Origin: Romanomermis culicivorax
Taxonomy: Eukaryota; Nematoda; Enoplea; Mermithida; Mermithidae
DNA length: 64,000 bases
Assembly (NCBI GenBank): GCA_963922205.1
Contig: CAWUHX010000149.1
Span: 124,001 to 188,000 of the forward strand
Reading direction: 5' to 3'
Positions 18,133-46,882 of this stretch are shown one piece after another. The position numbers were made by a program, and so were the translations under genes. Each line of letters opens with the position of its first letter. Position 1 is the stretch's first letter. The notes beneath the pieces were generated by a model. The model ran no database searches. It saw nothing but the letters and a program-made list of their open reading frames with translations, and was not told the DNA's origin.

Positions 18133-19535
18133 TGTCACGTTAAGTGGGGAATGGGGAGGTTTGGGTATCGCACCAGGTAGAAAACGTTGTTTCCCAGTCA
18201 CATCGATGGTGTACCATATCAGATTGACCCTATTACAGTGAGTAATAGGCTATGACTCCTGATGGATACTGGCGATTTCCCCATTCCGTTTGTTGGGGGC
18301 CTAACCCGGCGAGTGGTGGCTATAGGGAGGCCTATAGCTTTTCTCTGGTGCTGTCCTGGGGTCTTGCTGTAGGGTAATGGACAACGCCACCAGGTTAGGT
18401 GTGACAATCCCCGAGTCCTGCTCAGTGAGAGTGGGGACAAGGTCACCCGTAAAATGACCTGATTTGTGGGTCCCGATTATGAACCAGACAGTCCCTTTTT
18501 AGCCCAAACCTGAGAGGTGAGAGCCCTGCCTATATGGGGAGACCTGAGAAACTGACTTAAGAAGGGTTCCCCAAAAATATCCCACAATAACAATAATCCC
18601 CTGAGAAGACTCACCTAGTCCTGTTCTTCAAAGGATTCGACGAAACAGGCAGCAGGTCCCTGGGAACTTTCGGTTTTTGGACAAGGAATGGGGATGGGAT
18701 CCACTCGGTTCTTTGGCAACAGGTGCTGGGGATAGAGAGGCGACTCTCGATTATTATCCCTTAATCTGGGTGGTCAGGAACCTGGCATGGAGGAGCCACG
18801 GGTATGGTAACGTAGAATAGCGGTGAATGCAGTAAGTGATGAAAGTTATGCAAATTTATTTGAAACAAAAGGCGGCGGATGCAGAGGAGTATATAAAAAT
18901 ATGTAAATTTGAGGAGGGGCGGATGCAGAGTTAAGACAACGGAACGGAAACTTGGGTGAACCCAGAAGTGAGTGAAAAGTTAAAGAAACATGTCCTTTTA
19001 AGGACATGTTTGGCTACAGCTGCAGCTTGGGCGGAGTTTCTCAGTGTCCAAGCTAACTTCTGCAGCTAGACGCATTGCAGAAGATGCCTATGCACACATA
19101 GACATTTTTCGCTCACATGCGTTTAGCATTGGGGCCGACTGCAGTGCCCATGCTAAGCATATGAGCGTCTTTAGCTAAAACTTCTTAGCTAGTCGTTTTT
19201 GCATAACAAAAACGACGCTAATTTTTGTGGTAAGAGGTGCATGGAATGCACCAAAAATAGCCATGTGCTCGTGGAGCACATTTGGCAGAAGTTTATAGCT
19301 AAAGGGCTACTGTAGCCTGCATGCGTAAAGAAATGAAATACAATGAAAACGAAACATAAAAATGCATGAAAAATATATAAACAAACACAAAATGCATGTG
19401 CAGAAACAAAACAAATGAAAAGATGAATGAGTAGTAAACGAAAAGATGAATGAGTAGTAAACAAAACATGGAAAAAATAAAATGTTGACATGATTTGGAT
19501 CACGTGACATTGGGGAAATTGAGCGGCACGTGACA
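18133..19535 (-). repeat. LTR element 1, 3' LTR (complete)
   Basis: A 1403-bp LTR starting TGTCACGTT on the plus strand and ending CACGTGACA. From about 18285 onward it matches 32005-33215. It contains a 23-bp direct duplication (GAAAAGATGAATGAGTAGTA) at about 19416-19462 that is single in the other LTR. Open frames here (for example 19189-19536) are repeat-derived and not genes. Confidence 0.85.
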
Positions 19536-20157
19536 CGGCGGTCCTTCGAAAAAGGGCGTCCTCGTCCTTGCTGTGGTTAGTGGTGAGGGTTGCGCAGCGT
19601 GTCCTTGATTGTTGGTCCTTTCGGGGTACGATGGCGAGTAGTCGAATAGGTCCATTGGGTTGTTGGCGGATTAAGCCTTCTTTGATTGTGGTTTGTTCGA
19701 CAGTATGGTGACCGGAAATCGTTGATGCGTGAAGTTGCAGACATTGAATATTCTGTATGAAAATCTAGATCAGAGAAAAAGAAAAATTTTCAGGGCGAGA
19801 TGTAGGCTATCGCAGGGATGCGCCCGGTGAGGTGTAGGCTATCACAGGGATGGGCCCATGATGTGATGCTCTGGTTGCTGCTCATTCTCTTCTATCCACT
19901 AAGATTCAGCATGGATAAGAATGGATACTCAGTGAGGGGCACGGTGGTCCTTCGAAAGAGGGCGTCCTCGTCAGTAAGCGGGGACATTGAAGAGAAGAGC
20001 ATCTTGAATTAGTGGTGGGGGCCTCTGCATCAAGATGTGTTTCAATCAAATTAGGTGTAAAGTCCCGACTTGTTGAAGGGAACAACAAGGGTGCCGAATC
20101 CGCTGCCTGCGAAGTGGGAGGTGTATCCTCTGCTTCGCTCGGTTGGTCAGGGGACAC
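19536..20157 (-). other. region between pol end and 3' LTR
   Basis: There is no env here, which matters for the unusual gene order. A minus-strand frame (19906-20157) follows directly after the stop ending the GPY/F module. It encodes a low-complexity Pro/Ser/Thr-rich tail, perhaps the C-terminal tail of integrase reached by a mutated stop. The segment GTCCTTCGAAA-AGGGCGTCCTCGTC occurs twice (about 19541 and 19948), and AGGCTATCRCAGGGATG occurs twice near 19805-19850. Confidence 0.5.
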
Positions 20158-21518
20158 TTAAGGTCGAAGCTGGTTGATGTGTACAGTGTCCTCCTGATCC
20201 ATCTTGAGACGAAGTGTGACATTGGGATATGCCAGGCTTTTTACAAGATAGGGCCCATCGTAAATAGGCAGCAATTTAGGGGTGAGCCCACGATTGCTGG
20301 AAGTGCGCAGTTTGAGCACTTGATCCGCTATGTTGTACGAGACATCTCATGCCCTCCTGTCATAGGACCGTGCATAGGCCTCCTGTGCTTTCTCAATCCA
20401 ACTCTGGATTAAGGTCAGGGATTCGTGAAATGCCGTTTGACCTCCATATCATATGAGGAAACATTAATGATATGGGCTGGAGGGTTGAATGAGAGCACGG
20501 CGTCAACTGGGAGCATGGGTGTGCAACCATACATGAGTTCAAAGGGGGAATACCCTGTTGACTCATTCATGCTGATGTTGATGGCAAACACAGAGTACGG
20601 TAGGTGTTCATCCCAATCCGTATGTCTGTGATCAACATACATACGTAGCCATGTGGCTAGCATCTGATTAGCTCTTTCCACTTTACCGTTGGTCATGGGA
20701 TGATAGGCGGTAGAGTGGATTTTCTTCATTGAACAGATCGCAGTGATCTCAGTCATCAGTTTTGATGTGAAATCAGTGCCACAATCAGACTGAAGAATCT
20801 GCGGTGCCCCCTGCCTGCAGACAATCTGGGTTACAAACAGATGGGCTATGGTGTGCACAGTAATATCCGGAGTAGCAAAAGCCCATTTCGTAAAGTAGTC
20901 GATGAAGACTACAATGAAACGGTTGCCAGCTTCGCTAGTGGTCATTGGTCCCATACAGTCAACACCTACCCGATGAAACCGTCCTGTGATGGTGATAGGT
21001 TTCAGGGTCACAGTGGTTTTCTGTCGAGCGGGCTTATTCCACTGGCAAAGATCACACCGCTGATGGAAGGACTTGACGTCCCAACTAAGGGAAAGCCAGT
21101 GGTATCTGCGAGCAATGAGCCGCGCAGTATGTTTAGCACCAAAGTGTCCAGCTAAGATGTCATCATGATGAGTCCGGATAATGGTAGTAACCATGGATCT
21201 ACGCATGACAATCTTGTTGGACTCGCCTGTCCATTTCTGAAGGACGTTATCCAATAGATGGTAGCCTCGCACATCATTCTGGTTGCCCAGGGGCTTAAGA
21301 GAGTGAATGATGGCAGCTAGTTCCCGATCCTCCAGCTGAGCAGCGAGAAGGTCGGGGTGCTGCACACCAACTGATATCTTGGCATAATTCTCGGATCCTA
21401 CAGGGCGCTCTGCGCCAGCAGTGATCAGTGCTGAAGTACTTGATCCGGCCAGGTGCTGCACACCATCGGTGATAATTCTTGATCTCGCCAGGTGCTGCAC
21501 ACCATCGGTGATCATCAT
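20158..21518 (-). pseudogene. LTR element 1 integrase
   Basis: An open frame of 367 codons (20415-21518) contains an H-H-C-C zinc domain (T-H-H-D-D-I-L-A-G-H-F-G to C-D-L-C-Q-W). The DDE core follows: first Asp in G-V-D-C-M-G-P, second in Q-S-D-C-G-T-D-F, Glu in N-G-K-V-E-R-A-N-Q. It then runs into a conserved gypsy C-terminal region. A one-base loss near 20420 shifts the frame compared with element 2. The GPY/F module (Y-D-G-P-Y-L-V) and H-I-N-Q-L-R-P can be read at 20158-20280 in the shifted frame. The N-terminus carries a direct repeat, I-T-D-G-V-Q-H-L-A. It is the last pol domain and would integrate element cDNA. Confidence 0.85.
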
Positions 21519-21559
21519 GATATGTCCCTCAGGTCTGTAAAGGGGAGTATCATGGATAC

Positions 21560-22930
21560 TCTAATCGGTGAGGGAGGTAGGATCCAGCAGGCGCGATAAT
21601 GCATCAGCATCACCATTAGACTGACCTTTTTGTGGCCTAATTGTCAGTTTGAATTCGGCGAGCCCGAGTCCCCATCAAGGGATCCGAGCAGAGGGGTTAG
21701 GCTTCTCCAACACAGCTTTGACCGCTGTATGGTCAGTCTGAACGACCACCTCGTGCTGGAAGAGGTATGGCCAAAAGAGCTTGATGAAATGGACAACAGG
21801 GAGAGTTTCCAGTTCTGTAATGGAATAGTTTTTCTCAACCGCTGTTAACCCTCTGCTGGCCTACGCGACAGGATGGTCATATCTGAATTCTTCTAACTGG
21901 CTTAGAACCGCTCTTATCCCTGAAATACTTGCATCCATCTGGAGGATAAAGGATTTCGAGAAGTCTGGTTGGCGCAGGATAGGAGGGTTGGTCAGCAGTC
22001 GGCGGAGTTCGTCGAACACCTCCTGCTGAGGTTTGGACCACTGGAAAGTGATTTCCTTCCGTAAGAGCTTAGTTAGTGGCTTGCTGAGCAGGGCACAACC
22101 AGGGATGAAACGCCTGTAGTAAGACACGAGGCCGAGGAAGGACTTGATGTCTTTGGCATTCTGTGGAATGGGTAGATTTTGGATGGCCGCCAGCTTGACT
22201 TTGTCCGGTTCTAGGCTGCCCTGTGAGATGCGATAGCCTAGGTACTCTACCTCGGAGTGCAAGAATTTGCACTTGCTCAGTCTGAGCTTCATTCCACCCT
22301 GGCGAAGACGGGCGAACACATCTGCCAGGCGCTCAAGCATTTGGGTGTGGGAGTGTCCGAACACCAAAATGTCATCAAGATAGGTCAGAACCCTGTGCCA
22401 TTGGATTCCTGTAAGGAGAAGGTCCATGAGGCGTTGGAACGTCCCTGGTGCGTTGCACAGACTGAAAGGCAAGTAATTGAACTTGTAAAGTCCAATGGGC
22501 ATGTTGAATGCCGTCTTTTCTTTATCTGCCTCCGCAATTGGGATTGATCAATAGCCGTTAGCCTGATCAAGGGTTGTGAAGTACTTCATACCCTTGAGTG
22601 TGTCGAGAATGTCAACTATCCATGGGAGAGGGTAGACATCCTTTTTCGTGACCTCGTTAAGACCACGAAAATCAACACACATATGGTGAGAACCGTTTTT
22701 CTTGTGTACCAGGACAGTATTAGTAGCCTACGGTGATGTGCTCAGCCGGATAATACCTTTCTCCTGGAGGGCCTTGACCTCCTGCATGATGAGATCCTCT
22801 TCCTTAGGTGAGGACCAGTAAGGGAAATGGCGGACTGGGTGGGCATCGCCGGTGCTGATTTCATGCTGGACGAGATTAGTGGAACCTGTGTCCTTTTCAT
22901 CAAGAGCATAAAGGTCAGTGTATGCAACCA
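21560..22930 (-). pseudogene. LTR element 1 reverse transcriptase and RNase H
   Basis: RT blocks are visible in order: E-K-G-I-I-R-L-S-x-S-P, V-D-F-R-G-L-N, L-D-Q-A-N-G-Y, F-N-Y-L-P-F-S-L-C-N-A-P-G-T-F-Q, and the catalytic L-T-Y-L-D-D (about 22371-22385). The connection region F-L-G-L-V-S-Y-Y-R-R-F-I-P follows, then RNase H beginning D-A-S-I-S-G-I and continuing through Y-S-I-T-E-L-E-T-L and T-D-H-T-A-V to D-A-L-S-R-L. In-frame stops at about 22728 and before 22502 and a break near 21860 disable it. The frame is the same as that of the upstream protease domains and of integrase. Confidence 0.88.
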
Positions 22931-23299
22931 GTAGGTGGAGTAAGGCCGCCCAGTCCTGAGGGGAGATGTCCGGTGAGATTACAGCATTGGCCTCGACCCA
23001 TTGACGATCGAGGACGGTGTCTGAATTGACCGGTGATCCCTGTGAGGGCTCACTATGCATCTGCACATGACTGATGGTCATGTGGGGGTAGAGAACCACG
23101 GAATGAGTATTCGGGTTAACTACCTGAAGTGATATGCGACCATTGGTCACGCTACTCACGCTCCCAGCAAAATATATGTTTCCTTGAGATCCCGCGAGGT
23201 GCTTAGGGAAGAAGGCCACCTCAGGTACTTTCATATAAATTGGCGGTACTGGTATGGTGAATTGTGTCAGCGAGTGAGGCTCAAGAACCACGAAGTCCT

Positions 23300-23715
23300 C
23301 CAAGGGCAAGGCGCCACAAACAGAAAATGGGCTGTGGATGAGACGGTCACAGGGGATTTTTCTCTCTTTGAACTGGAGAAAGGATTTCTCCCAGTTCAAG
23401 CTGACACAATTGAACCATCGGAGGAAGTTTGTTCCGAGGATCAGTTCACCTAAACAGTTCTCCTGTTTCTGGACCTGGATCCGTTCAGAGACATCAGCCA
23501 CCGTGACCGTGATGTAGGCTGCTCCTAGCAGCAGGATCAGGGACCCGTTGGCTGCGATAGGATGAGCCCTAGTTTGTGTGAGCATCAAGTTGGGCAGTTT
23601 GGCCGCTAACTTGTGGTCCAGGAGTGAGAAAAAAGCTCCTGTGTTGACCAGTGCCTTTGCTTCTACCCAGTTGTTGAGGAGAACTTTGATATGGGGTGTC
23701 CGGATGCCATTTGGT
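23300..23715 (-). pseudogene. LTR element 1 second aspartic protease domain
   Basis: A retropepsin-like fold is indicated by A-L-V-N-T-G-A-F-F-S-L-L near the N-terminus, where the catalytic D-T-G has become N-T-G; element 2 has I-D-T-G at this place. A middle strand region P-I-A-A-N-G-S-L-I-L-L-L-G-A and the C-terminal I-L-G-T-N-F-L-R-W-F follow. It is in frame with RT downstream and with the first protease upstream. The preceding linker (23715-24077) is acidic and Pro/Ser-rich. In standard Ty3/gypsy elements this position holds the only protease. Confidence 0.75.
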
Positions 23716-24317
23716 TAGAAAGCAGATACCACATGACCTGAGTCAGCTATGGTGGCACCAATAGTGTGTTTAGTCTTACTGGACCGCTTTGGAAATGGCA
23801 ATCCAGTACGACGTAGTAGACCTACCAGAGAATATCCGATGGAGGGGTCCGGGTCATTTAGAAGGGTCGACTCATCCTGTACTGTGAGTACATGGTCTGA
23901 GGGGTCCTGTGGGCTCTGAGTAGCTCCTAGTGATTCAATCTCAGTGTCTGATAGTGGTGGCACGTTCAGCACGGGGGATGCCGGGGCATCTGAATCACTT
24001 GGCTCATGGAATCGGCCTTTCTCTAGGGTAACTGGAGAGTTTCCAGGCGAGGGTCCAGGGCAACCCCACCCTTGCAAGGTCGATTAATGACGACTTGCAC
24101 ACCTGGATGAAGTCCAGTATCACCTGGTTGACCCACGTGATGAGGCAACTGAGGAGGCCCGTGAGTGTGGCCGAGAGATGGACAAAGCCCTGGACCGTGA
24201 TCGTGATCCCAATCTGTGTGAGTTTAGTGATAGTGAACGTGTGTTCTCCCACCAGGGGTCGATCTGGTCAATCTCTGGCGTGGTCAGGAGGAGGGGCAAT
24301 TCTACCACGTCCAGCAG

Positions 24318-24690
24318 ACAAACATTACGTTGGTAGTCAAACATAATATTCTTGAACTGTTCTAGGAAGTCCAGTCCAAGTATTAGGTCAACAGGTGCCC
24401 AGAAGGGAGACGTAGTCTTGCACACATGGAGATGTATATCGATCCGTGTGTTCAGCTGGTGGTTTCCTGGCAACATTATTTCATATGGTTCGGACAGGAT
24501 GGTATGAACGACTTTACCATTGATGCTCATCAATGGGTTGAAGTCCTGATGTTGCTGGAACGCCATGACCGCCTTCGGACTCTCTTTAACCAAAGCCTTG
24601 TGAAGACGTTGGCTAATGATAGTGCAGGGGCAACCCGTATCAAGGAAAGCCGGAGTTTCCTTGGTATCCAACAGCACTACCAAACACCGT
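24318..24690 (-). pseudogene. LTR element 1 first aspartic protease domain
   Basis: Lies in the 24120-24932 open frame. About 70 residues after a transmembrane segment come C-L-V-V-L-L-D-T-K and P-A-F-L-D-T-G-C-P-C-T-I-I-S (catalytic DTG at about 24633-24641), then L-M-S-I-N-G-K-V-V and V-D-L-I-L-G-L-D-F-L-E-Q-F, the second conserved retropepsin block. It is followed by a Ser/Arg-rich stretch (SRSRSRALSISRPHSR) and a stop absent from element 2. This domain is separate from the retropepsin at 23300-23715, so the element encodes two. It sits on the cytoplasmic side of the membrane anchor if the env part is translated with it. Confidence 0.75.
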
Positions 24691-26562
24691 GTGATTCGAT
24701 CGAGCTGGGACGGCATGTCATTTTGCACGTAATGAAAACCAATCCAGCGTTGGACTTTGTGATAAAGACCCAACGGGGAGAAATGGCTAACACGGACCTG
24801 CTTGTTCCCCAGAGGGTAGCTGAGATATTGAGATACACCAAGGTATGCTAGGTATCCGACACCAACCAGCACCGTCAGGGTTATTAGGGTGTTAAAGATC
24901 AACTGAACCGGCCCGCTCAGGACAGCATGCAAGCCCTAAACGAGGTTGTGTTGTTGACCAGTAATCACATGGTTTGCTGCCAAACGGACACCTTCCAGGG
25001 AGGCGTTGATGTCGGTTCTTACCCCTGCAAAAGCCTGGTAGAGGGCGTCCGGTTGCAGGGATAGACCAGCGGTAAAGTTTACCAGCCGGTTTAGTGCCAC
25101 TTCAATTTGCTGTCTTGTAAACATACTGTTTAAAGAAGGCAAAGTCTGATGGGGTCATCACCAACTGGTCATGGAAGAGCCCTGGTGCATCAAAGTGAGT
25201 GACGTTGAAGCGCTGCTTCCAGAAGAGTTCCAGTGGGATGTGGCTCACATGGACCGTGCCAGAATCAGTAAACCAGCCTGAGTGATTTCACAAAATCCCT
25301 GTAAAGTGGTGGTGACATGCAATTGGGCTAGATTTAATGAGATCTGGACCACCGGGGGTGGCCAAATAGATGGTGCCACCAACCTGTACAGGTATGTACT
25401 TGTAGCAGACGTTTCCTACCCAGTACGAGTGTTAGACGTAGGTGGCATTGACCTTTTGACACGGCCATATTATCAGTGCATTGCCTGTGAATTCCGCCGT
25501 CAGGTCATTCCTTTGGAGGAATGCCCGGGCACCCAGTGTAGGGTCGAAGCCGAGCAACTGCCAAGTCAGATCAAGGTAGCTTTGAGCGTGAGAGCAGAGC
25601 TCAAGCCACGTGAACCGGAAACCGTTAATTTCTGACTCCTTGAGCTGCTGAGCCAGATAGTTCAGTTTGGCGTTGACAGGATCGGGACGTGTGTCTTTTG
25701 CCAACCTGAACATGTTTTGGGTCAAATTGTATCTCCCATGGATGCGTAGGAGGAGACCCTGATCCGTCCAAACTGTGGTGGAACATAGTTCTGGGCACAG
25801 TTGGAAGACGCAGGAGTTTCCCCGGATCTTGAGGGCAACCTGTAGATCATCGATGATGACGTGGTTCCCTGACATGGAGGCAGTGTAATTTCCCTTGGGG
25901 TGATAATGACACCGCGCCGTGAAGTTTTGGGCAGGCCAGACAATGACCCCGTCGAGGGTTGTGCACTGACCTGCAGTGGGACTGCATCCACCTACATTCC
26001 CTAAGGTGCTTAGAGCTGTAGTGCCATCCCACGAAGCGATTTGTCCCTCCTCAATGAAGAGGTTAGTCACTATCTTGCAGAAGTCACTGCAGCACCATTC
26101 GTACATCACTTCCAATGTTTGGTTTGTGCTATAAAAGCCATGGCCGATACCAACAAGTTTTTGTGAGCCAAACATTTTAGTGTGATGTGCTAGCCTGCAG
26201 GCCCCAGGCGCTAAGTGCTGAGTGGTAATGACGTCTGCAGTGATGCCCCTAGAACCGAAGAAACCAGTGTTGGTGCAGACTCCGCAGCTGTGCAATGTGC
26301 ATTTCCACGCTGTGGTCGTAATCAGGTCTGAACTTGGGACATACACCATAACATTCATGCATTGTGGACTCCATGAAGATTGCGGTGGTTTACACTCTAC
26401 ACACTGGGTTAACTCAAGTGGATGTCCGCTTTTTGAGAGACCACAAAATTGATGCTGAGCTGCTGGTGCTGCCAAACTCACCCCTAGAAACAGTGATGTT
26501 ACTATGGTCAATTTTATTAGTGAAGACAACTGTACAAACCTGGTTTGTAAGTGTTCACACAT
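24691..26562 (-). pseudogene. LTR element 1 Env-like membrane glycoprotein
   Basis: The frame opens at ATG 26562. A hydrophobic signal-like stretch (LIKLTIVTSLFLGVSLAAPA) is followed by a cysteine-rich ectodomain with many N-glycosylation sequons (N-Q-T, N-F-T, N-Y-T, N-L-T, N-A-T, N-V-T). Near the C-terminus lie F-F-K-Q-Y-V-Y, L-V-N-F-T and a hydrophobic anchor at about 24840-24908 (L-I-F-N-T-L-I-T-L-T-V-L-V-G-V-G-Y). This copy has a TAA at 25432, a TGA at about 25285, a one-base shift near 25110 and a TGA at 24936; element 2 is open at the last two. I do not recognise the glycoprotein lineage with certainty; invertebrate LTR elements have captured envelope genes from several virus groups. 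It lies between gag and pol, and its corrected frame equals that of pol. Confidence 0.65.
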
Positions 26563-26590
26563 TTTCAGGAATCTGGCTGGATGGGCATTT

Positions 26591-27853
26591 TCAGATTTCC
26601 TCTTTGTCGCTGTCGGAGGAGATCAGTTCCTGACTGGGGAAGTTGATGACCAACCCTCCACATGGGTGGATTTCCCAGAGGATGCCGATCTTTGGCGACT
26701 GTGGGGGGACTGCCGTGGGGAACGGTGATTCCTCAATAATGCTAACATCCTCATTAACCGAACGTATCGTCTCATCAACGGCCATGGGTTCGATGACGGG
26801 CGACTCAGTCGTGACCGCCGGAGAGTTGTCTTGGGCTGGCGCTGGCGATGTGTCTTGGGCTGGCGCCGGGGATGCGTTTTGGGCTGCTGCCCGCGATATT
26901 TGGTCAGTTGCTTGGTCCTTTGCTGGAGGTGAAGAAGCAATTGTGACCGTTTCTGTTGGCGGGGTAGCGGCAACAGGGGGCGCTGCTGTCGGTGGTGTGG
27001 TGGCCACAGCAGGCAGGAGGATCGGACTGGCCTGTTCGACTGCACGGCAGACGGCATCAACTGCCGGTGAGGATGGTTCCCCATCGGGCAACCTCGGGTC
27101 GTAAGAGTCGCATTGATATAGGTGCCATGAGCACCATGTCGGCGGCTGTGAGCGCTTCGACTTGTGATGGCTCCTTGAGCAGTGTCCATGGTAAATGCGG
27201 GTATTTCTTGGCCAGGTCAACAGACCAGATGGCCAACATCACATCTTGAACAGGGGATGGTGCTGTGAACAAGAAATCGATAGAGTCATGGACTGAGATA
27301 GATTTCTAGTTCCTGTTCTAGGATCACCGGAAAAAGAAGGTAGTATACCTGTCAAGTTCATCGGCTCGACCTGGTCGATGACTTCCATAGCCGAATCCGT
27401 AGAGATCCCCAGCGGTGGTCCTTGAGTGAAAGTGCGGGCCAATGGCGCCGGAGACGTCGCATTGGTGGCTGGAGCTAGCTTGACAGTCCTAGTTTTTGGA
27501 ATGCAATATGACGCAAGGATGTTAGCGTGGTTAACAAACTGCGGTGTCATCAAGAGGTCCATGGTGACCGGCATTGCATACCTTGGTGGTGGCAGGGGTA
27601 TGTCTGACACACATATTGGTACTGGTACCTGGGCTGCTTGGACTGCTGAAAACCCAATACTGATTACCCAGACAGGATAACACTGTTGTGAAGGATCTGC
27701 CAGGTGTTCAGCAAGTACTTCATCATCCAGATCAAGAGGATTTGGGTGAGGAGGACCGTCCGTAGACCCAACGGCATTGTTGCGGTGTATGGGCTGCCGA
27801 TATTGGTTCCCCATCCCGTTAGGAGGGTGATAAGCATTCCTCTGGTGATACAC
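26591..27853 (-). pseudogene. LTR element 1 gag-env connector
   Basis: Two open pieces (27239-27853 and 26591-27220) share the gag frame, with a short intervening piece (27057-27272) in another frame, so frameshifts are likely. The first contains a hydrophobic run (VWVISIGFSAVQAAQ) followed by Pro-rich sequence and Cys residues, which could be the N-terminus of the glycoprotein precursor. The second is Ala/Pro/Thr-rich with a triplicated S-P-A-P-A-Q-D-like repeat and an acidic end (SSDSDKEEI). I recognise no domain. It could be the C-terminus of Gag, an Env surface subunit, or both. Element 2 has lost this region, so it cannot help to decide. Confidence 0.45.
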
Positions 27854-27979
27854 ATTTGACCCCTGGGAAGATTAACCAGTATATTGGTAGTCATTCTCAC
27901 CCGTGTTTGCTGTAATGCACTGGGGACAGGCAGTTGATCAGTGCACTCGCACTTGATGACAATGAGGGCATGGCCAATC

Positions 27980-29062
27980 ACATCAGTCCGTGGGGTGAGC
28001 ACGCGTACGACAAAAATAACAGCGACCACCATTAGCAGTGTTGTTACCGGGGGCGGCACTGGCGGGACGCTGGGCCCGACAATCAGCATCACTATGCATA
28101 CACAGTCTGTGGAAGGAGCATGTTTGAAGGTGTGCTCCTGACAAGCTTCGCCCGATAGACTGATTTGGTGTCGACGGCTGTGGAGGCGGCGTCTGCTGGA
28201 TTGGGGCTGGTGCACGTTGCTGGGCCATGAGCTTTGCTACATGGGCCGTTAGCCTGGCCATTTCCTGTTTTAAGCGGTGGACCTGATCTGCCGAGGATGA
28301 CAATGTTTGAGCATTGCTCTGACGACCGTTGGCGCTTCTGTTAGGCATATCGGGATTATATCCAGCAGGTTTAGGTTCTGAAGAGAAAACGGCATTAGAT
28401 GGTGCGGTGTACTGAATCTCATCCCGGAAGATTTGGGATTCTGCGTAACAGGCTGCCTTGAGAGTCTCTTCAAGAGTCGTAAACTCCCTAGACTTGATAC
28501 TATCGTGGAGGACCGGTTTCAATCCCCGCAGAAAGATAGGTTTGATGATAGAATCTCTGACATCGGTCGCGAGATCTGGATATGCTACCCTGGACAATCT
28601 CTTGAGGTGCTCAAGGTAGACTATCGCGGACTCAGACGGCTTCTGGAGGTGATCTTGGATCAGCTGTTGATGCAGATCAGAGTCATGCCCTACCGGAAAG
28701 TCTTTCCGTAGAAAAGCCATAAACCCTTCGTAGCGGGTAGGTTGTGGAGTGCCACTGCTAAAGTCCCGGTAGGAGGCAAGAGCAGGACCCATAAGGCATG
28801 ACTCCAGAAAGGCGATTTTACATGCATGATCGGTTTCACTTACACCCTGAAGTGTAAAGAAATGAGTAAGATGGGACATAAAGTCAGTGATGGACTCACC
28901 AAAAGCACCTGAAAAGGTTGGAGGGGCCATAAAGCTGGACACGGGAGGGTGCCTCCGACCATTTATGGCCTCTAACTTTTGGTTGAGGGGTCCAAGAGCA
29001 TTCTCAAATGCTGCCTGGACCTTGTTCTCGATCTGTGAAGGGAGATCAATTTCCGACTTCAT
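27980..29062 (-). pseudogene. LTR element 1 Gag
   Basis: About 360 codons from ATG 29062. The central region fits the retrotransposon Gag (capsid) domain: F-S-G-A-F-G-E-S-I-T-D-F, F-L-x-S-C-L-M-G-P-A-L-A, F-L-R-K-D-F and L-K-R-L-S-R-V-A-Y-P. A coiled-coil-like segment (VHRLKQEMARLTAHVAKLM) precedes a Gln/Pro-rich linker. The C-terminus has a C-x4-C...C pattern and a zinc knuckle C-Y-F-C-R-T-R-A-H-P-T-D-stop-C; the TGA at 27983-27985 falls inside the last spacer of the CCHC motif, so it is a mutation and not the natural end. Further Cys pairs (C-P-H-C, C-P-Q-C) follow. Confidence 0.8.
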
Positions 29063-29162
29063 ATCCGAGGATTCGTCCTCCCGTAAGGTGGTTAGAACAG
29101 ACGTTCTTGCCCGTGAAGCAATTATGTCAAATTGAATAGAGAGTGGCTCACTGGTCTATACA

Positions 29163-32004
29163 GGCTGGGTACTTAGATGGCAGGAATGACGAGGTGTCTC
29201 TATTGTGTAAAGTGAGAGTAAGTACTACTTTTTCAAATTGGCGGCGAAAGAGCACGTGAATACAAAAGACGCTTGTGCGAGGGCGTTTGTGACGTGAACT
29301 TGGTTCAGCTTAAGACTAGCGACCACAAAATAGAGCTAGAATGGGAATAAGGTTGTAGGACGCAAGACGTAACAGAGTACATCAGGGTGACGCAGAAGGG
29401 AATTTATCTGGTGGCCCATGATGGGTATAGGCATGGCCTGATATATGGGGAATCAATCCCGACTGAGAGGATGTACAGTTGGGGCCTGGACCCGGCAATT
29501 GGAACAGCCGAAGAGAGAGAAAGATAAGAGAGAGAGAGAGAGGAAGCCGTTTTCCTGCCAAAAAATGAGGAGACCGATAAACCCGCTCAGAAGGGATGTT
29601 TTCTGAAGGTTCAACCATTGGTACTAGTTTACAAACCTTGGGGCGAGGCGGACTCGTGGCTGACAAGATCCTACTCACCAGGAGTAGCGCATAAAGTGGC
29701 ATAAGGTAAAAAAGGATGTGGGCAACTGAAAGTGAACTTAGAAGGGAGCAATAAATAGGGACAAAACTAATTTACAAACCCAGTTACGCAAAGGGGTCGC
29801 GCAGTTACGCAACGGGCCTCACTCGCCAGGAGCGATTGGGATCTCTGTACAGTGTGATGGACTATACAGAGGTTCCGTGTTGGACGACATTCGCAAGTAA
29901 CTTACAGCCGTGTCCGAAACGGGAGCCCGCATTCTGAACAGAACGGACACTCTCCAGGAGTATTATATACAGCTGGTGGCCGGGTTGCGGATCACTGAGA
30001 TGTAATGAGGCTCGCAGGTCACACAGTGGAAGAGAGAGAGAGCACGGGTACCAAGGGTGCTATTCTGACACACTCAGTCAGCTAAGATGAATTTACCCTG
30101 GATGTTTTGAGGGCGCACCCAAAAACATCTAAGGGATCACGGGTACAAGGTGTCCCTGGGTGAATTATTGAGTGTAAATAACTGAGGCGAACCCAGTTAT
30201 GCAATGAGGCCTACTCAACACCTTCCCTGAGGCGGACTCAATGGTGCCTATTATATTACATGACTAACAGGGGTGGACCACGGAGGCGGACTCTGGGTCA
30301 GTGGTGACTCTAGCGCGGGCATCATTAAGCCAGTTAACAAAGGCGTTCAAGTGAATGAAATATGACAGGGGGTCCTATACACTCTAGGCCCAACCGGAGG
30401 CTGTGCCGCGGTCCCTCAGGAACCACTACAGCGGGGACACTAAAGAAGATCTATGTATGACAACTTGGTGAGAGGAAAGAAATGAGTGAATTTAGATAAG
30501 AAATTTACAAGAAGGCTGCTGAACCCTAGCAGATGTCAGGCACGAGCAGTACTGACTGCCAATGCCCACCATTTACACGAGTCAAGCAACCAACCCAGCT
30601 GGGGCCGAGTGTAACTCGTTCAAACCTGCAGTTAAAGCTTAAAGGCAGCCATGTGCTGATCAACAGTGCTGCTACACGGGTGGACAACCTGATCAGTATC
30701 ATGGGCTAGATAGCATCTCAGGTGGTGTATGTGTGTTGACTGATGTTTCCCAGGCATCAGTCCCATCCATACACCAACCCTTTGGCAAGAGCAGCAGGTG
30801 ATAGGGCCATGCGCCAACAACCACCTACGACTCAAGTGGGTTACTCGAAGGACCGACAGTAACCTGGTGCTGATGTCAAAAGGTAGGGGTATGAACCAAC
30901 ACATGACCTCGGTGCTGACTGCAGGTGCCTGGGATAAGGGTACCCAAGTATCATGTCCCAGTTGCAGACACCAGGGGTGAGTGCCTAAGGCCAGCAGACC
31001 CCTGCAGTAACATGTAATGTCGCCGTTGCAGACGTCAGAAATAGGATTGTGTAACCTCAATTCCTGCTATGGGAACATGATACACTGTCATTGGCAACAT
31101 CAGCAATAGGGCCCTGAAGCCAGCTATCTGTATACAGTAACACATGGTGTTGCCCTTGCTGACATCAAAGGTGGAACCAAGGGTCCGATACCCTAAGTCA
31201 ATGACATGAGATGCGGTTGTTGCAGACGTCAGATGTGGGATCCGTAAGACCTGCACATCTCTGAATAATGACACCTTGCATCACTATTGCTGACGTCACA
31301 GATGGGGTGCAGGCAACCAGCCAATCCTGCTGCAACAACTTGAGCTTCAGCTGTTGCAGTTGTCAGGAGTCAGTACTGCAGAAGTATCAACCCAACACAA
31401 CAACACGTAATGTTGCCGTTGCTGATCTCAGGAGTAGAACCCAGAGGGCTACCCACCCCTTAAAGCAACAGCAGGTGAAGGGGCTGTTGCAGACGTCAGT
31501 GGTTGCATCCCTGAGGCTGAACCACGGAACAACAACAGGTAACGTTGTTGTTGCTGATGTCATGGAGCATGACCCGTAAAGTCCATGATCCGGATGCAAC
31601 AACCAAAAAATAAAAGAGGAGAGACCTAACAGTAAGCAAAGATGAAAAAGAGAGAGAGATTTACGTAAGGGTGTCATACTGTAGCGGTGGCGTAAGAAAA
31701 CATAATTTTTTTTTACCACTCAGATGACGGAAAGAGGAAAGAAATGGAGGAAAAATAACAAAAAGCAGAAAATACGAGATTTGTACATACGCATGTTAAA
31801 GGTGTAAACAGTATTGAGAAAATTTTTGGGGGTGGAGAAGTGAGCAACTCCAACAGTTTCTGGTGAAATAAGAAAATACTGTACACAATTAACAGATGGC
31901 AGCCACCTATGACGTCCAGAATCATGTGTGGAGGGTGTACTGTATCATGGGGTCATGGACCACTATCAGTCAGGAGAGGCCATCAACCCCTAGAGCTGTG
32001 ATAC
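29163..32004 (-). other. LTR element 1 long 5' leader
   Basis: Nearly 2.8 kb lies between the 5' LTR remnant and gag without a credible long coding frame. It contains a GA-rich microsatellite near 29520-29545 and another near 30030, and a tandem array at 30850-31590 described separately. The segment 31896-32004 matches element 2 at about 46083-46190, which shows that sequence between there and the LTR interior is deleted in element 1. Open frames such as 30632-31060 are the tandem repeat read through. Confidence 0.6.
30850..31590 (-). repeat. tandem array of hairpin plus CRE-like units in the leader
   Basis: At least nine, probably twelve, diverged units at a spacing of about 60-74 bases. 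Each has a short inverted segment of the AACAACATG-to-GTTGTTG type, followed by TTGCTGACGTCAG or TTGCAGACGTCAG. The clearest units start near 30998, 31138, 31201, 31264, 31401, 31461 and 31528. TGACGTCA is the classical CREB/ATF palindrome. A matching array is in element 2 at 45040-45850. Confidence 0.7.
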
Positions 32005-33215
32005 CAAATTCCCTTTGTTGGGGGCCTAACCCAGCGAGTGGTGGCTATAGGGAGGCCTATAGCTTTTCTCTGGTGCTGTCCTGGGATCTTGCTGTAGGGT
32101 AATGGACAACGCCACCAGGTTAGGTGTGACAATCCCCGAGTCGTGCTCAGTGAGAGTGGGGACAAGGTCACCCGTAAAATGACCTGATTTGTGGGACCTG
32201 ATTATGAACCAGACAGTCCCTTTTTAGCCCAAACCTGAGAGGTGAGAGCCCTGCCTATCTGGGGAGACCTGGGAAACCGACTTAAGAAGGGTTCCCCAAA
32301 AATATCCCACAATAACAATAATCCCCTGAGAAGACTCACCTAGTCCTGTTCTTCAAAGGATTCGACGAAACGGGTGGCAGGTCCCTGAGAACTTTCGGTT
32401 TTGGGACAAGGAACGGGGATGCGATCCACTCAGTTCTTTGGCAATGGGTGCTGGCGATAGGGAGGCGACTCTCGATTATTATCCCTTAATCTGGGTGGTC
32501 AGGAACCTGGCACAGAGGAGCGACGGGTATGGTAATGTAGAACAGCGGTAAACGCAGTAAGGGATGAAAGTTATGCAAATTTATTTGAAACAAAAGGCGG
32601 CGGACGCAGACGAGTATATAAAAATATGTAAATTTGAGGAGCGGTGGACACGGAGTTAAGACTACTGAACGGAAACTTGGGTGAACCCAAAAGTGAGTGA
32701 AAAGTTAAAGAAACATGTCCTTTTAAGGACATGTTAGGCTACAGCTGCAGCTTGGGGGGAGTTTCTCGGCGTCCAAGCTAACTTCTGCAGCTAGACACGA
32801 TGCAGAAGATGCCTATGCGCACATAGACATTTTTGGCTCACATGCGTTTAGCATTGGGGCCGACTGCAGTGCCTATGCTAAGCATATGAGCAATTTTAGC
32901 TAAAACTTCTTAGCTAGTCGTTTTTGCGTAACAAAAACGACGCTGGAATGCACCAAAAATAGCCATGTGCTCGTGGAGCACGTTTGGCAGAAGTTTATAG
33001 CTAAAGGGCCTACTGTAGCCTGCGTGCGTAAAGAAATAAAATACAATGAAAACGAAACATAAAAATGCATGAAAAATATAAAAACGAACACAAAATGCAT
33101 GTGCAGAAACAAAACAAACGAAAAGATGAATGAGTAGTAAACAAAACATGGAAAAAATAAAATGTTGACATGATTTGGATCACGTGACCTTGGGGAAATT
33201 GAGCGCCATGTGACA
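32005..33215 (-). repeat. LTR element 1, 5' LTR (truncated)
   Basis: Matches 18285-19535 with scattered differences. It lacks the first roughly 150 bases of the LTR on the plus-strand side; the break falls near 32005, where leader sequence joins directly to ATTCCCTTTGTTGGGGGCC. The outer end GCCATGTGACA at 33215 is intact and is followed by the GTAG duplication. Confidence 0.8.
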
Positions 33216-36838: not shown

Positions 36839-38264
36839 TGTCACATTAAACAAATTTGGAGCCATGCCACATTAACTGAAAACTGGACAATCACATTGAT
36901 GGGAAGAAAACCCATGCCATATTGGTAAAAATACGGGCATGTCACTGTAAGGGACATGCTGTGACCCTCTTGGGTGGCTCGCTAATATATTTGTTTCGGG
37001 AACCTAACCCAGCTAGTACTGGCTATAGGAGGGCCTATAGGGTACTACAGTGCTGTCCTTGGGTTCTGCTGTAGGGTAAGGGACAACACCGCTGGGTCAG
37101 GGGTGGCAATCCCTACTCCCATTCAGTGAGAATGAAGGACAAAGCCATTTGTGGAATGGCCTACTGTAGGGGACTTGATTGTAAACCTAAATCCCTTTTT
37201 TGGCCCCCAAAACCAAGAGGTACAAGGGCTACTCTAACTGAGGAGATTCTCAAGGGGAAACCGACTTGGAAAAGGGTTCCCACAAATACACCCTCAACAA
37301 CAATAATCTCCTGAGAAGACTTACCTAGTCATTTTTCTCAACTATGACTCAGAGCAGGGCGACAGGTTCACGGGTTCACTGATCCTGGGACGATGTAAAT
37401 GGGATGATGGTGGTCCATATCGGGTTCAGCATGGGGTCTACTGTAAAACGGGTCGGCAGGTGATGCAGGCAATCCACAAATGGAGGGACGGGCAGGTACT
37501 AGGCAAGAGGGGCGATGTATAACTCCTATGCAGGAATGTGGGTGGCGAACGCAGTGATGAACAGGAAGTCCTATGCAAATTTATTCGAAAATATAGGCTG
37601 TGGACGCAATGTATGTAAACTAATATAAAATAGCTTATAGGCACAAGATGCAGAGCTAAACGCGAAGAAAAGTGATGTAGTCCCGAAAATGAGTACAAAA
37701 CTAACTAAACAGGCCCTTTTAAAGGGCCTTGTAGACCTACAGTATGCCCTGGGCGGAGCTAACAATGCCCAAGCTAACTTCTGCAGCAGAAATTGCTGCA
37801 GAAGATGCCTATAGTCACATAGACATTTTCCAGTTCAAATACCTTAAGCATTGGGGTGAGTTTCACTTTCCATTCTAAACATATGAAGGTCTTTTAGATA
37901 GAATCTTCAAACTAGTCGTTTCACATTGCCAAATGTGGCTAGTTTCTACTGATGAGAGGTGCACATAATCCTCCAATTATGGCCATGAGCTCGTAGAGCT
38001 TATCTTGGCAGAAATTCTAACTAATGGGTCACATACCATAGTCTATGTGTGCGACGGAAAAATAATAAAACGTAATGGAATTGAAAAACACAAAATGAAA
38101 CAGAAACAAAACACCAAAAATGCACACAAAAAAGCATGTAAAATATAATGAATGAAATGCAAAAATAAGAGTAAGTAACTGTTAAACAAAAAGTGGCGAA
38201 AAACATAAAGTATCAGCATGATGTGAATCATGTGACATTGGGCAAAATTGATCAGCATGTGATA
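36839..38264 (-). repeat. LTR element 2, 3' LTR
   Basis: 1426 bp, beginning TGTCACATTAAAC. It ends CATGTGATA, a one-base change from the CATGTGACA of the other LTR. It matches 46883-48299 over its length and shares short blocks such as GGGCCTATAG and CCTAACCCAGC with the LTRs of element 1. Confidence 0.85.
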
Positions 38265-39018
38265 TGGCAGTCCTTCGAAAAAGGGCGTCCTCATCCTTGT
38301 GGTGGTAGAGATTTATGTGGCATGTCTATGGAGGTTGATTGTCCAATGGGTGTGACGGCGGGTGGTCAATGGTCCCATGGGGTTTTTGGCATGTTTTGGC
38401 TCCTGGAGTTATGTTGGTGATGTGTGGGGTTGCTGACATCAATTGATCCTTGTGGTTGGTGATGTGTGGAGTTGCTGACATCAATTGATTGGTGTGGTAG
38501 TGTGTGGAGTTGCCATTGTCCACTGATCTGTGAAATCTATAATGAGATTAAAATAAAAATTTTAGGGGCAAGATGCAGGCTATCACAGGGATTGGCCTGT
38601 GGTATGAGGCAATACCCTAGTTTACATGCTTTGATCACTGCTCATTCTCTTCTTTACACTAGTGATCCAGCATGGAACAAGAGTGGGTATTCCCTGAGGG
38701 GCACGGCAGTCCTTCAAAAAAGGACATCCTCATCCGTGAGTGGGGACAAAAGAAGAGAAGAGCTACTTCATTATGGGTTGGAGACCTCTGCATCAAGGTG
38801 TGGGTCAATGAGATCTTGTGTAAAATCTCAACTTGTTGATGGAATCAACAAGGGTGCCATCTCAAATACCTGAAATGTGGAAGCCATCTCCTCTGCTTCA
38901 CTTGGTGGATCAGGTGACGCCTAGCATCTAAGCTGATTGACACAGTATCTTCTTGATTTATCTCAAGACAAATGGTGACATTAGGCCATGCAGCATTCAT
39001 TACAAAATAGGGCCCATC

Positions 39019-40154
39019 CTAAATGGGCAGCGGTTTAGGCCTAAGACCACATCTGCCAGCAGTGCGCAGTCTGAGCACTTGATCCCCAACTTCGTATGAA
39101 ACATCTCCTGCCATGTGATCATAAGACCGAGCATAAGCCGCTTGTGATTTCTCAATCCGACTCTGGATTGAGGTCAAGGCATTCATAAAATGCTGTTTGA
39201 CCTCCATATCATATGTGGAAATATCAATGATATGGACCAGAGGGTTGAATGAGAATGCGGCATAACAGATAGCATGGGAGTACGACCATACATGAGTTCA
39301 AAGGGAAAATATCCTGTGGACTCATTCATGCTAATGTTGACAGCAAACACAGAATACGGCAGGTGTTCATTCCAATCAGTATAACCTTGATGGACATACA
39401 TAGGTAGCCCAGTAGCTAACGTTTGATTAGCTCTTTCCACTTCGCCATTTGTCATCTGGTGATAAGTGGTGGAGTGTATTTTCTTAGTTGAACAGATGGC
39501 AGTGATTTTGGGCATCAGTTTTGATGTGAAATCAGTGCCACGGTCAGACTGAAGAATCTGCGGTGCCCCATGCCGGCAGACAATTTGTGTAACAAAAAGG
39601 GGGGCTATAGTTTGTACAGTGATATCTGGAGTAGCAAAAGCTTCAAGCCATTTGGTAAAGTAGTCAATTAAGACTACAATAAAATGATTGTCAGCATCAC
39701 TAGTGGTCATTGGTCCCATACCGTTGACACCTACTCAGTGAAAAGGCCCCTTAATAGTTATAGGTTTCAGAGCTGCTCAGGTCTTTTGTCTGGAGGGTTT
39801 ATTCCATTGGCAAAGATCACACTGCTGACAGAAGGACTTGACGTCCACACTGAGGGAAGGCCAGTGGCACCTGGGGGCTTTACATTTATCACCAAAGTGT
39901 CCAGCTAAAATGTCATTATGATGGGCCTCCATAATTGTAGTAACCATGGATCTGGGAATGACAATTTTGTAGGACTCGCCTGTCCACTTTTGAAGGATGT
40001 TATCCAACAAGTGGGTGCCATCAACATCATCCTGATCACCCAAGGGTTTTAGCAATCTAAGTATGGAGGCTAGATCCGGATTCTCAAATTGAGCTGTGAG
40101 AAGGTCATGGTGCTGCCCATCCATCGATATCTCCACATAAGACTCTGATCTCAC
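39019..40154 (-). pseudogene. LTR element 2 integrase
   Basis: Pieces at 39777-40154, 39183-39719 and 39019-39207 align with element 1 integrase. Visible are the zinc domain (A-H-H-N-D-I-L-A-G-H-F-G, C-D-L-C-Q-W), the second core Asp in Q-S-D-R-G-T-D-F, the Glu in N-G-E-V-E-R-A-N-Q, and V-S-Y-E-V-G-D-Q-V-L of the C-terminal domain. Breaks lie near 39725-39775 and 39190-39250. Confidence 0.82.
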
Positions 40155-40289
40155 CAGGCCCTACACACCATCAGTGATCAATTCAGATGATCTCACCAGG
40201 TGCTGAGCACCATCCATGACTGTCATCACTTGTCCCTCAGGCTTGTAAAGGGGAGTATCCTCGATACTCTCACCAGTGAGAGAATTAGG

Positions 40290-41549: not shown

Positions 41550-41908
41550 AAGGTCAGTGGAACTTGTGTCCTTCTCATCAATAGCATAGAGGTCAGTGTA
41601 TGTGACCAGTAGGTCAATGAAAGCTGTCCTGTCCTGGGAAGTGATATCAGGGAATATGACAGCATTTGCTTCAACCTACTTCTGATCAAGGATGGTATCT
41701 GATTTGACCCCCGATCCACGTGAGAGAGCAGTGTGCATCTGCACATCACTGATGGTCTTGTCGGGGTAGAGAACCACTCAATGTGTATTTGGGTTGACTA
41801 CCTGTAAGGGTATGCGGCCATTAGTGACCCTACTCACAGTCCCAGCAAAATATACGCTGCTATGAGATCCTGAGAGGGGCTTAGTGAAGAAAACCACCTC
41901 TGGTACAT

Positions 41909-42574: not shown

Positions 42575-42605
42575 TCGCCCCTGAGCTCTGAGTAGCTCCT
42601 AGTGA

Positions 42606-46864: not shown

Positions 46865-46882
46865 GATTTTCCAGCCTGGCCA
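46865..46882 (-). promoter_or_regulatory. probable tRNA primer binding site of element 2
   Basis: Immediately inside the 5' LTR, the minus strand reads TGGCCAGGCTGGAAAATC. It begins with TGG, as expected for pairing with a tRNA 3' CCA, and touches the LTR end without spacer. I cannot name the tRNA. Element 1 has lost the corresponding segment. Confidence 0.6.

What the first reader, a model, noticed from the sequence alone, without database searches (positions are those of the whole stretch)
20158..29062. Env-like glycoprotein encoded upstream of pol, apparently fused in frame to it
Seen: in LTR element 1 the minus-strand order is gag, connector, cysteine-rich glycosylated ectodomain, transmembrane segment, protease 1, protease 2, RT, RNase H, integrase, LTR. 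From about 25110 to 20415 all pieces share one frame. Where element 1 is broken (near 25110, 24936 and 24120), element 2 is open, so the ancestor probably had one continuous Env-Pol frame. No env lies between integrase and the 3' LTR. Known: Ty3/gypsy errantiviruses and vertebrate retroviruses place env after pol and express it from a spliced RNA. Inference: this family may make a membrane-anchored Env-protease-RT-integrase polyprotein, with pol on the cytoplasmic side. I know of no described element with this design.
Basis: partly seen in the sequence, partly recalled or inferred. Interest (0 to 1): 0.88.

Follow-up and report, generated by a model that had tools for sequence, protein, structure and literature searches.

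The report
Retroelement with envelope before polymerase
In a mosquito-killing roundworm, a family of virus-like jumping genes encodes capsid, membrane-fusion envelope and replication enzymes in one uninterrupted reading frame, with the envelope in the middle instead of at the end, which suggests an unusual way of building a retrovirus-like particle.

Summary
The window lies in a 359-Mb genome matching Romanomermis culicivorax. Elements 1 and 2 are decayed copies of an LTR retroelement ordered Gag, gB/chuvirus-like Env, transmembrane segment, protease(s), RT, RNase H, integrase. Other copies in this genome carry this as ONE natural open frame: 67 of 142 scored copies of the window's TM/protease-1 piece lie in a frame of at least 3,040 codons; in 7 of 18 fetched 10-kb loci, 13 of them picked for long frames, all detected domains share one frame. 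Two copies checked to the ends have identical LTRs and 4-bp duplications, and the 3' LTR starts 13 bases after the last sense base, leaving no room for a downstream env. In five copies a signal-peptide-like segment and a TM flank Env. Gag is in the frame too. The window's family adds a second retropepsin-like domain and a selected, overlapping +2-frame ORF. Likely mechanism: one Gag-Env-Pol polyprotein threaded through the ER membrane, Pol cytosolic. No RNA or protein data were available. Novelty: new variant of a known kind.

The parts
18283..19577 (-). element 1, 3' LTR (approximate ends)
   Evidence: 18283-19535 vs 32008-33215, 91.4% identical; similarity to element 2 LTR runs to 19577
32008..33215 (-). 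element 1, 5' LTR (approximate ends)
30488..31576 (-). element 1, 5' leader region shared with element 2
   Evidence: 72% identical to 44594-45677
27983..29155 (-). Gag, first ATG at 29062
   Evidence: Ty3_capsid 1e-6, just below cut-off; 91% identical to codons 24-413 of the 3,092-codon frame of L025
27239..27871 (-). Gag C-terminal part / connector, same frame as gag in element 1
26591..27238 (-). connector; holds most of the remnant of the overlapping +2-frame ORF (ends with its own stop at 26591)
   Evidence: tblastn to L025, L026, L031-L033 in the +2 frame, 66-71%, and to L030, 37%; dN/dS 0.14-0.33 in +2 frame
25432..26622 (-). Env-like ectodomain, main part, with signal-peptide-like segment about 26473-26529
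   Evidence: PF24664 E 7.4e-5 here, below cut-off; 1.7e-14 and 3.7e-19 in L025 and L012, above cut-off
25102..25287 (-). Env ectodomain, C-terminal part
   Evidence: tblastn to 16 of 16 loci L009-L024 and to L025, L026
24936..25154 (-). Env membrane-proximal stalk
   Evidence: tblastn to 15 of 16 loci L009-L024 (none reported in L020) and L025, L026
24843..24902 (-). Env transmembrane segment
   Evidence: hydropathy of homologous codons 1459-1477 of L025
24276..24704 (-). protease 1, retropepsin-like, seen only in the window's family
   Evidence: dN/dS 0.13; hhalign to protease 2, probability 86%, E 5.6e-6; DDI1 protease E 0.004; Pfam only 0.1 and below cut-off
23715..24259 (-). Ser/Arg-rich linker between the proteases, weakly constrained
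   Evidence: dN/dS 0.41
22728..23714 (-). protease 2 and N-terminal RT
   Evidence: gag-asp_proteas 6.8e-5, below cut-off; 2.4e-7, above cut-off, in L025
21861..22547 (-). RT and RNase H
   Evidence: RVT_1 2.5e-19, RT_RNaseH_2 2.9e-13
20415..21560 (-). RNase H-integrase region
   Evidence: Integrase_H2C2 1.6e-14; rve 4e-5, below cut-off
20158..20346 (-). C-terminal end of the frame; stop shared with element 2
36839..38306 (-). element 2, 3' LTR
   Evidence: 89.5% identical to 46883-48297
46883..48297 (-). element 2, 5' LTR
43379..44047 (-). element 2, Env C-terminal ectodomain in one frame across the place where element 1 changes frame
42930..43337 (-). element 2, protease 1
   Evidence: 79% identical to L025 protease 1
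41909..42598 (-). element 2, linker and protease 2
40569..41675 (-). element 2, RT/RNase H (two open pieces)
39183..40160 (-). element 2, integrase (two open pieces)

Best explanation
Elements 1 and 2 are dead copies of a Ty3/gypsy-type (Metaviridae-like) endogenous retrovirus lineage that carries a gB/chuvirus-like envelope gene between gag and pol. Shown: in three families of this genome Gag, Env, protease, RT, RNase H and integrase occupy one natural open frame of about 2,480 to 3,100 codons, under purifying selection over most of its length, in young LTR-bounded copies. Inferred: the frame is translated as one polyprotein. Gag is made first in the cytosol, an internal signal peptide then sends Env across the ER membrane, the single transmembrane segment stops transfer, and Pol is made as the cytosolic tail of Env. 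The protease(s) just inside the membrane then cut Gag, Env and Pol apart during assembly, so Env and Pol would reach the particle by being tethered to it, without a separate spliced env RNA. In the window's family a second protease and an overlapping +2-frame protein are present. How Gag is made in excess over Env-Pol is not known.
For: Single natural frames: L009-L013 (5 of 16 loci, 11 of them picked for long frames), L025 and L026 (2 of 2, both picked for long frames); 67 of 142 scored copies in a frame of at least 3,040 codons, 38 exactly 3,092 and 22 exactly 3,100. Youth and boundaries: LTR pairs identical over 887 bases in L009 and L011, TG..CA ends, 4-bp duplications. The 3' LTR begins 13 bases after the last sense base in L009-L011. 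Selection: Env to IN dN/dS 0.13-0.41 in one frame between elements 1 and 2; Gag through Env 0.00-0.42 in the main frame in the L012/L013/L019 family, from copies only 3-4% diverged, so the values are rough. Topology: signal-peptide-like and TM segments flank Env in five of five copies examined. Env identity: PF24664 over cut-off at 68 of 68 scored places, herpesvirus gB in the PDB E 1.6e-5. Env and RT/RNase H trees give the same grouping of six families. In the window's family the main frame stays free of stops across the overlapped spacer more often than synonymous shuffles give: P 0.003 to 0.046 in five copies that are not independent; L025 and L030 are diverged by dS of about 1.4-1.8. No start codon lies between codon 850 and the signal segment in L025, nor between 858 and it in L026.
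Against: No RNA, ribosome or protein data. One frame would give equal Gag, Env and Pol, which is unusual for particles. In the window's family the Gag-Env spacer (codons about 664-893) is selected in the +2 frame, not the main frame, and Env codons 886-1000 show only weak constraint between L025 and element 1 (0.63) though strong constraint from 915 between L025 and L030 (0.08). The L009 and L015 families could not be tested for selection at the Gag-Env junction: the pairs used are 98-99% identical. In L009-L011, L020, L022 and L024 the protease triplet is DCG instead of DTG or DSG (6 of 18 loci), so protease activity in those families is uncertain. One R. culicivorax gene model (P0003) skips Env by a predicted GT-AG intron. 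In the L023 family none of three copies is open across Gag-Env (one stop, two different indels), though each lesion is private. The Env model by AlphaFold was useless (mean pLDDT 33).
Confidence: 0.72

Rival explanations
1. Env lies in an in-frame, optionally removed intron: spliced RNA makes Gag-Pol, unspliced RNA makes Gag-Env-Pol or Env. This would solve the stoichiometry problem.
For: Gene model P0003 joins connector to protease 1 by a GT-AG intron around Env. Homologous GT and AG, phase 0 on both sides, are present in intact L025 and L026. The nematode element Cer1 is spliced to make an accessory protein (PMC10309623, passages read).
Against: P0003 comes from a broken copy with a 1.06-kb gap and the basis of the model is unknown. 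The GT at that place is lost in element 1. No GT lies within 75 bases before the signal segment in L009 and L013, and L012 has one GT at a different distance. The sites are weak by eye.
Confidence: 0.15
2. Gag and Env-Pol are separate products: Env-Pol is translated from a spliced subgenomic RNA or by reinitiation, and the open frame through the spacer is a by-product of a stop-poor overlapping ORF.
For: Main-frame amino acids of the spacer are not constrained in the window's family (dN/dS 0.7-1.4 for L025 vs L030). Retroviral env is expressed from a separate spliced RNA (stated in PMC10309623).
Against: In the L012/L013/L019 family the junction looks constrained in the main frame, on few substitutions. 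Main-frame stops are rarer than in synonymous shuffles. No start codon lies just before the signal segment in L025/L026.
Confidence: 0.1
3. Env is a captured passenger that no longer works, kept only because stops would truncate Pol.
For: A frame-preserving insert upstream of Pol must stay open whatever its function. One Env window (codons 886-1000, L025 vs element 1) has dN/dS 0.63.
Against: Other Env comparisons give dN/dS 0.08-0.22; eight cysteines are invariant over ten sequences, eight of them from six families of this genome; signal and TM segments are kept.
Confidence: 0.02
4. Assembly or insertion artefact: a virus glycoprotein gene inserted into one retroelement copy.
For: None found.
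Against: At least 67 copies with the long frame, six families, clean LTRs and target duplications in two copies checked.
Confidence: 0.01

Closest known systems
Ty3/gypsy elements and errantiviruses (Metaviridae)
   Same: RT closest to Ty3 RT, Ty3-type capsid, PR-RT-RH-IN order, TG..CA LTRs, 4-bp duplication
   Different: Errantivirus env lies after pol (recalled); here Env lies between Gag and PR in the same frame. I recall preprint work on gB-like env in other metazoan errantiviruses; the library holds no such paper that I found
Atlas virus and related nematode Belpaoviridae (PMC9094657, passages read)
   Same: Nematode LTR element with one Gag, Pol and Env frame and an Env captured from another virus group; the same passages mention a weakly gB-like Env in the Tas element of Ascaris
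   Different: Atlas order is Gag-Pol-Env with a phlebovirus-like class II Env and a belpaovirus RT; here Env is second, gB/chuvirus-like, and RT is Ty3-like
Anakin, Pao element with chuvirus glycoprotein in mosquitoes (PMC7642597, passages read)
   Same: Chuvirus-type glycoprotein captured by an LTR retroelement
   Different: Anakin is a Pao element; its internal order was not seen in the passages read. A follow-up found no clear capture by Gypsy elements (PMC10084718, passages read)
Cer1 of C. elegans (PMC10309623, passages read)
   Same: Nematode LTR element of the gypsy type (type recalled) with no stop between gag and pol, plus an accessory protein that uses another reading frame in part
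   Different: No Env; CERV is made by five-exon splicing, whereas the +2 ORF here is one overlapping ORF with a conserved ATG and a different position
Flavivirus and alphavirus structural polyproteins (recalled)
   Same: Cytosolic capsid followed by internal signal peptide, glycoprotein and TM in one polyprotein
   Different: Different genomes and folds; analogy of topology only

Membership tests
Metaviridae / Ty3-gypsy | RT and RNase H of Ty3 type | tested here: met
   PDB search: 4ol8 E 2.8e-48 and Ty3-G Gag-Pol 7q5b E 1.9e-47, next best 1.3e-26 (that 4ol8 is Ty3 is recalled); RT_RNaseH_2 6e-37. No RT tree with named references was made
Metaviridae / Ty3-gypsy | Integrase nearer to Ty3 than to retroviruses | tested here: inconclusive
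   L012 piece: foamy virus integrase 1.6e-27, Ty3 2.5e-27
Metaviridae / Ty3-gypsy | Ty3-type Gag capsid | tested here: met
   Ty3_capsid 8.5e-8, over cut-off in L025; in L012 it is below cut-off but Retrotrans_gag is over cut-off, with three zf-CCHC
Metaviridae / Ty3-gypsy | Order PR-RT-RH-IN between LTRs with 4-6 bp duplications | tested here: met
   duplications checked in two copies, 4 bp each
Errantivirus-type enveloped gypsy | env downstream of pol as a third ORF | tested here: not met
   Env upstream of PR in 18 of 18 fetched loci; 3' LTR 13 bases after the last sense base in L009-L011
Belpaoviridae (Atlas, Anakin) | Bel/Pao-type pol | tested here: not met
   Pfam and PDB hits are Ty3/retroviral types; no direct comparison with a Bel/Pao protein was made
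Class III fusion proteins (gB / Monjiviricetes) | sequence profile of the fusion glycoprotein | tested here: met
   PF24664 3.7e-19 and 1.7e-14; gB 5c6t 1.6e-5 and four weaker herpesvirus-type chains
Class III fusion proteins (gB / Monjiviricetes) | class III three-dimensional fold | tested here: inconclusive
   AlphaFold model too poor, pLDDT 33
Class III fusion proteins (gB / Monjiviricetes) | membrane fusion activity | not tested
   no experiment
Single Gag-Env-Pol polyprotein | one uninterrupted selected frame in natural copies | tested here: met
   spacer exception in the window's family
Single Gag-Env-Pol polyprotein | translated as one chain | not testable with these tools
   needs RNA and peptides
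Retropepsin (protease 1) | DTG motif and retropepsin-like profile | tested here: met
   DTG in L025, L026 and element 1, not in element 2; hhalign 86% to protease 2; DDI1 E 0.004; Pfam only 0.05, below cut-off

The most novel reading that the evidence does not exclude
An enveloped retroelement lineage in which Pol is synthesised as the cytosolic tail of its own fusion glycoprotein inside one Gag-Env-Pol polyprotein. Envelope and enzymes would be delivered to particles by membrane tethering, with no separate env RNA and, in the families without the overlapping ORF, no gag-pol frameshift. In one family a second membrane-proximal protease and an overlapping accessory gene (possibly a nuclear-export or assembly factor) were added.
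Probability: 0.5. Interest if true: 0.92.

Novelty: new variant of a known kind. Interest (0 to 1): 0.85.

Why it matters
Textbook retroviruses and errantiviruses keep env behind pol so that splicing can set its amount separately (recalled). A young, multi-family lineage that does the opposite shows that an enveloped retroelement gene order can be rearranged and still spread. It gives a testable case for how Gag:Env:Pol ratios and membrane topology can be handled in one polyprotein. It is also a clear case of a gB/chuvirus-type glycoprotein inside a Ty3/gypsy element: PMC10084718 found no clear such capture (passages). I do not claim it is the first, because I recall preprints on gB-like env in other errantiviruses that this library does not hold.

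Tried and rejected
Env-excision splicing as a lineage-wide mechanism: the donor GT is absent or moved in other families, so it is kept only as a rival. A -1 slippery heptamer into the +2 ORF: none conserved in six copies scanned. A frameshift reading of the +2 ORF is not favoured, because selection in that frame begins at its conserved ATG. A conserved Gag-Env stop in the L023 family: the stop is not shared by L042 or L043; each of the three copies has its own lesion. Protein searches: Env and an Env alignment gave only P0001 and P0002, the TM/protease piece only P0003. IMG/VR scan: no relative. AlphaFold of the Env piece with three sequences: pLDDT 33, so no fold search was run. Search for Env-less or other-order relatives with the most divergent RT: the machine was busy each time, so it is untested. 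Rows dropped: trees used 13 of 18 ten-kb loci; one search aligned three of five junction loci (L041 and L044 belong to other families). The 16 loci were not random: 11 were chosen for long open frames, 5 for shorter ones; L025 and L026 were chosen for long frames too.
Full report
1. What was checked. The minus strand of 18283-33215 holds LTR element 1 and 36839-48297 holds element 2. The stated order is there: gag, connector, cysteine-rich Env-like piece, TM, two proteases, RT, RNase H, integrase. Several Pfam matches of these decayed pieces fall below the curated cut-offs. Pieces from 25154 to 20415 share one frame. The two elements are 76-78% identical over about 5.9 kb. Over 1,804 aligned codons no stop is shared between Env and protease 1; the shared stops are at 21863, 21677 and 20160. 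Between the copies dN/dS is 0.18 in the Env C-part, 0.22 in the stalk, 0.17 from TM to protease 1, 0.13 in protease 1, 0.41 in the linker, 0.22 in protease 2, 0.17-0.28 in RT to IN and 0.32 at the very C-terminus, always in the frame expected for one coding sequence, with the other frames at 0.75-2.41.

2. Host. One protein hit of the TM/protease piece, P0003, is named Romanomermis culicivorax (lineage). It maps to the window's own genome (359 Mb, 595 contigs) at 98.6% over residues 1-145 and 93.9% over 144-209. The genome is therefore R. culicivorax or a very near relative.

3. Natural copies. A search of that genome with PF24664 scored 68 places (of 2,320 candidates), 68 of 68 over the family cut-off, 8 of 68 in frames of at least 2,400 codons. 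I fetched 16 loci, 11 chosen for long frames and 5 for shorter ones. In 16 of 16 the Env pieces lie before the protease/RT piece, and after gag in the 14 of 16 where gag was detected. In 5 of 16 (L009-L013) one open frame of 2,480-2,578 codons holds all detected pieces: gag, Env, protease, RT/RH and IN; L013 also holds the tail of a neighbouring copy. The TM/protease-1 piece of element 1 scored 142 copies (of 1,639 candidates); 67 of 142 lie in a frame of at least 3,040 codons, 38 of exactly 3,092 and 22 of exactly 3,100. The RT piece gave 63 of 150 such frames; these sets overlap. In L025 and L026, picked from these, Gag, Env, proteases, RT and IN sit in that frame: Gag codons 24-413, Env 884-1445, TM and protease 1 1448-1683, protease 2 and RT 1856-2183, RT/RH 2245-2472, IN 2574-2955 in L025, shifted by up to 8 codons in L026; part of the connector piece matches another frame.

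4. Age and boundaries. LTR pairs are identical over 887 bases in L009 and L011, with TG..CA ends and 4-bp duplications. Visible LTR parts are identical in L010, L012, L013 and L024 too, and 98.4-99.6% identical in L014-L019 and L022. L025 has 1,038 of 1,038 compared LTR bases identical, L026 98.8% of 1,009. In L009-L011 the 3' LTR begins 13 bases after the last sense base, so env cannot lie downstream there. Element 1 and 2 LTR pairs are 91% and 89% identical: old, dead copies.

5. What Env is. Natural Env pieces match PF24664 (3.7e-19 in L012, 1.7e-14 in L025), with weak Glycoprotein_B and BDV_G hits below cut-off. A ten-sequence profile finds herpesvirus gB in the PDB (5c6t, E 1.6e-5; three more chains named gB and one named ORF8 at 1.3e-4 to 1.4e-3). 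Env and RT/RNase H trees give the same grouping of six families. The protease-2/RT-N piece gives the same six groups but joins L015 with L025 and places the L012 group differently, with a long-branch warning. This fits one old capture, inherited since.

6. Topology. In five natural frames from three families the strong hydrophobic segments are one just before Env and one at its end (L025 915-933 and 1459-1477; L009 705-723 and 1256-1274; L012 654-676 and 1203-1221; L013 660-682 and 1209-1227; L026 923-941 and 1467-1485, plus one weak segment at 519-537). This predicts Gag in the cytosol, Env outside, Pol in the cytosol. It is inference from hydropathy.

7. The window's family has extras. Protease 1 lies between TM and protease 2; tblastn did not find the TM/protease-1 piece in any of L009-L024. 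It resembles protease 2 (hhalign 86%) and DDI1 (E 0.004). Between Gag and Env, codons about 664-893 are selected in the +2 frame (dN/dS 0.09-0.24 for L025 vs L030) and not in the main frame (0.7-1.4); selection returns to the main frame at codon 915, the signal segment, with 0.08. Between L025 and element 1 the window 886-1000 gives only 0.63. The +2 ORF starts at a conserved ATG in five copies and has no Pfam match. The main frame is nevertheless free of stops there: synonymous shuffles of the +2 ORF keep it so in 0.3-4.6% of cases in five copies, which are related and not independent. In the L012/L013/L019 family the Gag-Env junction is constrained in the main frame (0.28-0.42), though on few substitutions; the L009 and L015 pairs are too similar to tell. 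So the polyprotein reading does not rest on the window's family alone.

8. Protease triplet. Protease 2 has DTG in 9 of 18 loci, DSG in 3 and DCG in 6 (L009-L011, L020, L022, L024). DCG is shared by two families and by young copies, so it is a lineage feature; whether such a protease works is unknown.

9. Splicing. P0003 is a gene model that skips Env with a GT-AG intron in a broken copy. The same dinucleotides exist in L025/L026 in phase 0 but not at that place in L009, L012 or L013. I keep it as a rival.

10. The L023 family: gag and Env-Pol share a frame but for one stop; two other copies lack that stop and have private indels instead. None of the three is open across the junction. L041 (L015 family) and L044 (L012 family) are open over the 433 codons fetched round the junction.

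11. Known work. Atlas virus encodes one Gag-Pol-Env polyprotein in a belpaovirus (PMC9094657, passages). Anakin is a Pao element with a chuvirus glycoprotein (PMC7642597, passages). A survey found no clear Gypsy capture of such glycoproteins, two cases inside complete transposon boundaries (one unclassified element in Bemisia tabaci, one Anakin), and two nematode cases flanked by simple repeats (PMC10084718, passages). Cer1 has no stop between gag and pol and an accessory protein partly in another frame (PMC10309623, passages). Bdelloid rotifer env-like ORFs lie downstream of pol (PMC5408684, passages). Searches listed no paper that I recognised as describing env between gag and pol fused in frame; I saw listings for most, not the papers, and only open-licence PMC text is held.

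12. Verdict. Architecture: about 0.97 sure. Polyprotein mechanism: about 0.72. Open: RNA and protein evidence, how Gag excess is made, what the +2 ORF and protease 1 do, whether Env-less relatives exist.

Noticed in passing
window 26591-27238; L025 2151-2837: Overlapping +2-frame ORF of about 190-253 codons between Gag and Env, conserved ATG, acidic tail, dN/dS 0.09-0.24, no Pfam match.
   Followed up: partly
window 24276-24704: Second retropepsin-like domain next to the Env TM, not found in the other families fetched.
   Followed up: partly
L009-L011, L020, L022, L024: Protease active-site triplet reads DCG instead of DTG or DSG in 6 of 18 loci.
   Followed up: partly
window 21863 and 21677: Elements 1 and 2, only 76-78% identical, share two stops in the RNase H region; shared descent from a defective lineage or recurrent mutation.
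   Followed up: no
window 20157-19800: Beyond the end of the frame one reading frame still gives dN/dS 0.46 between elements 1 and 2; stops are present and it may be chance.
   Followed up: no
G000:C17 about 1927500, 1939680, 1951859; G000:C180 404, 8769, 17134: Three copies each at constant spacing (12.18 kb and 8.37 kb), as if whole elements were tandemly duplicated.
   Followed up: no
window 9856-10359: Open stretch that looks by eye like an aldehyde dehydrogenase exon, probably a host gene (name recalled, no search).
   Followed up: no
window 62531-63191: Tandem array with about 21-base units inside a larger period.
   Followed up: no
window 206-370 and 8847-9010: Inverted pair of repeats, 89% identical, 8.5 kb apart.
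   Followed up: no
P0002: Env relative of unnamed origin carries a furin-like RKRR site; none in the window's three Env pieces nor in Env of the five natural frames scanned (one match in pol of L025).
   Followed up: partly
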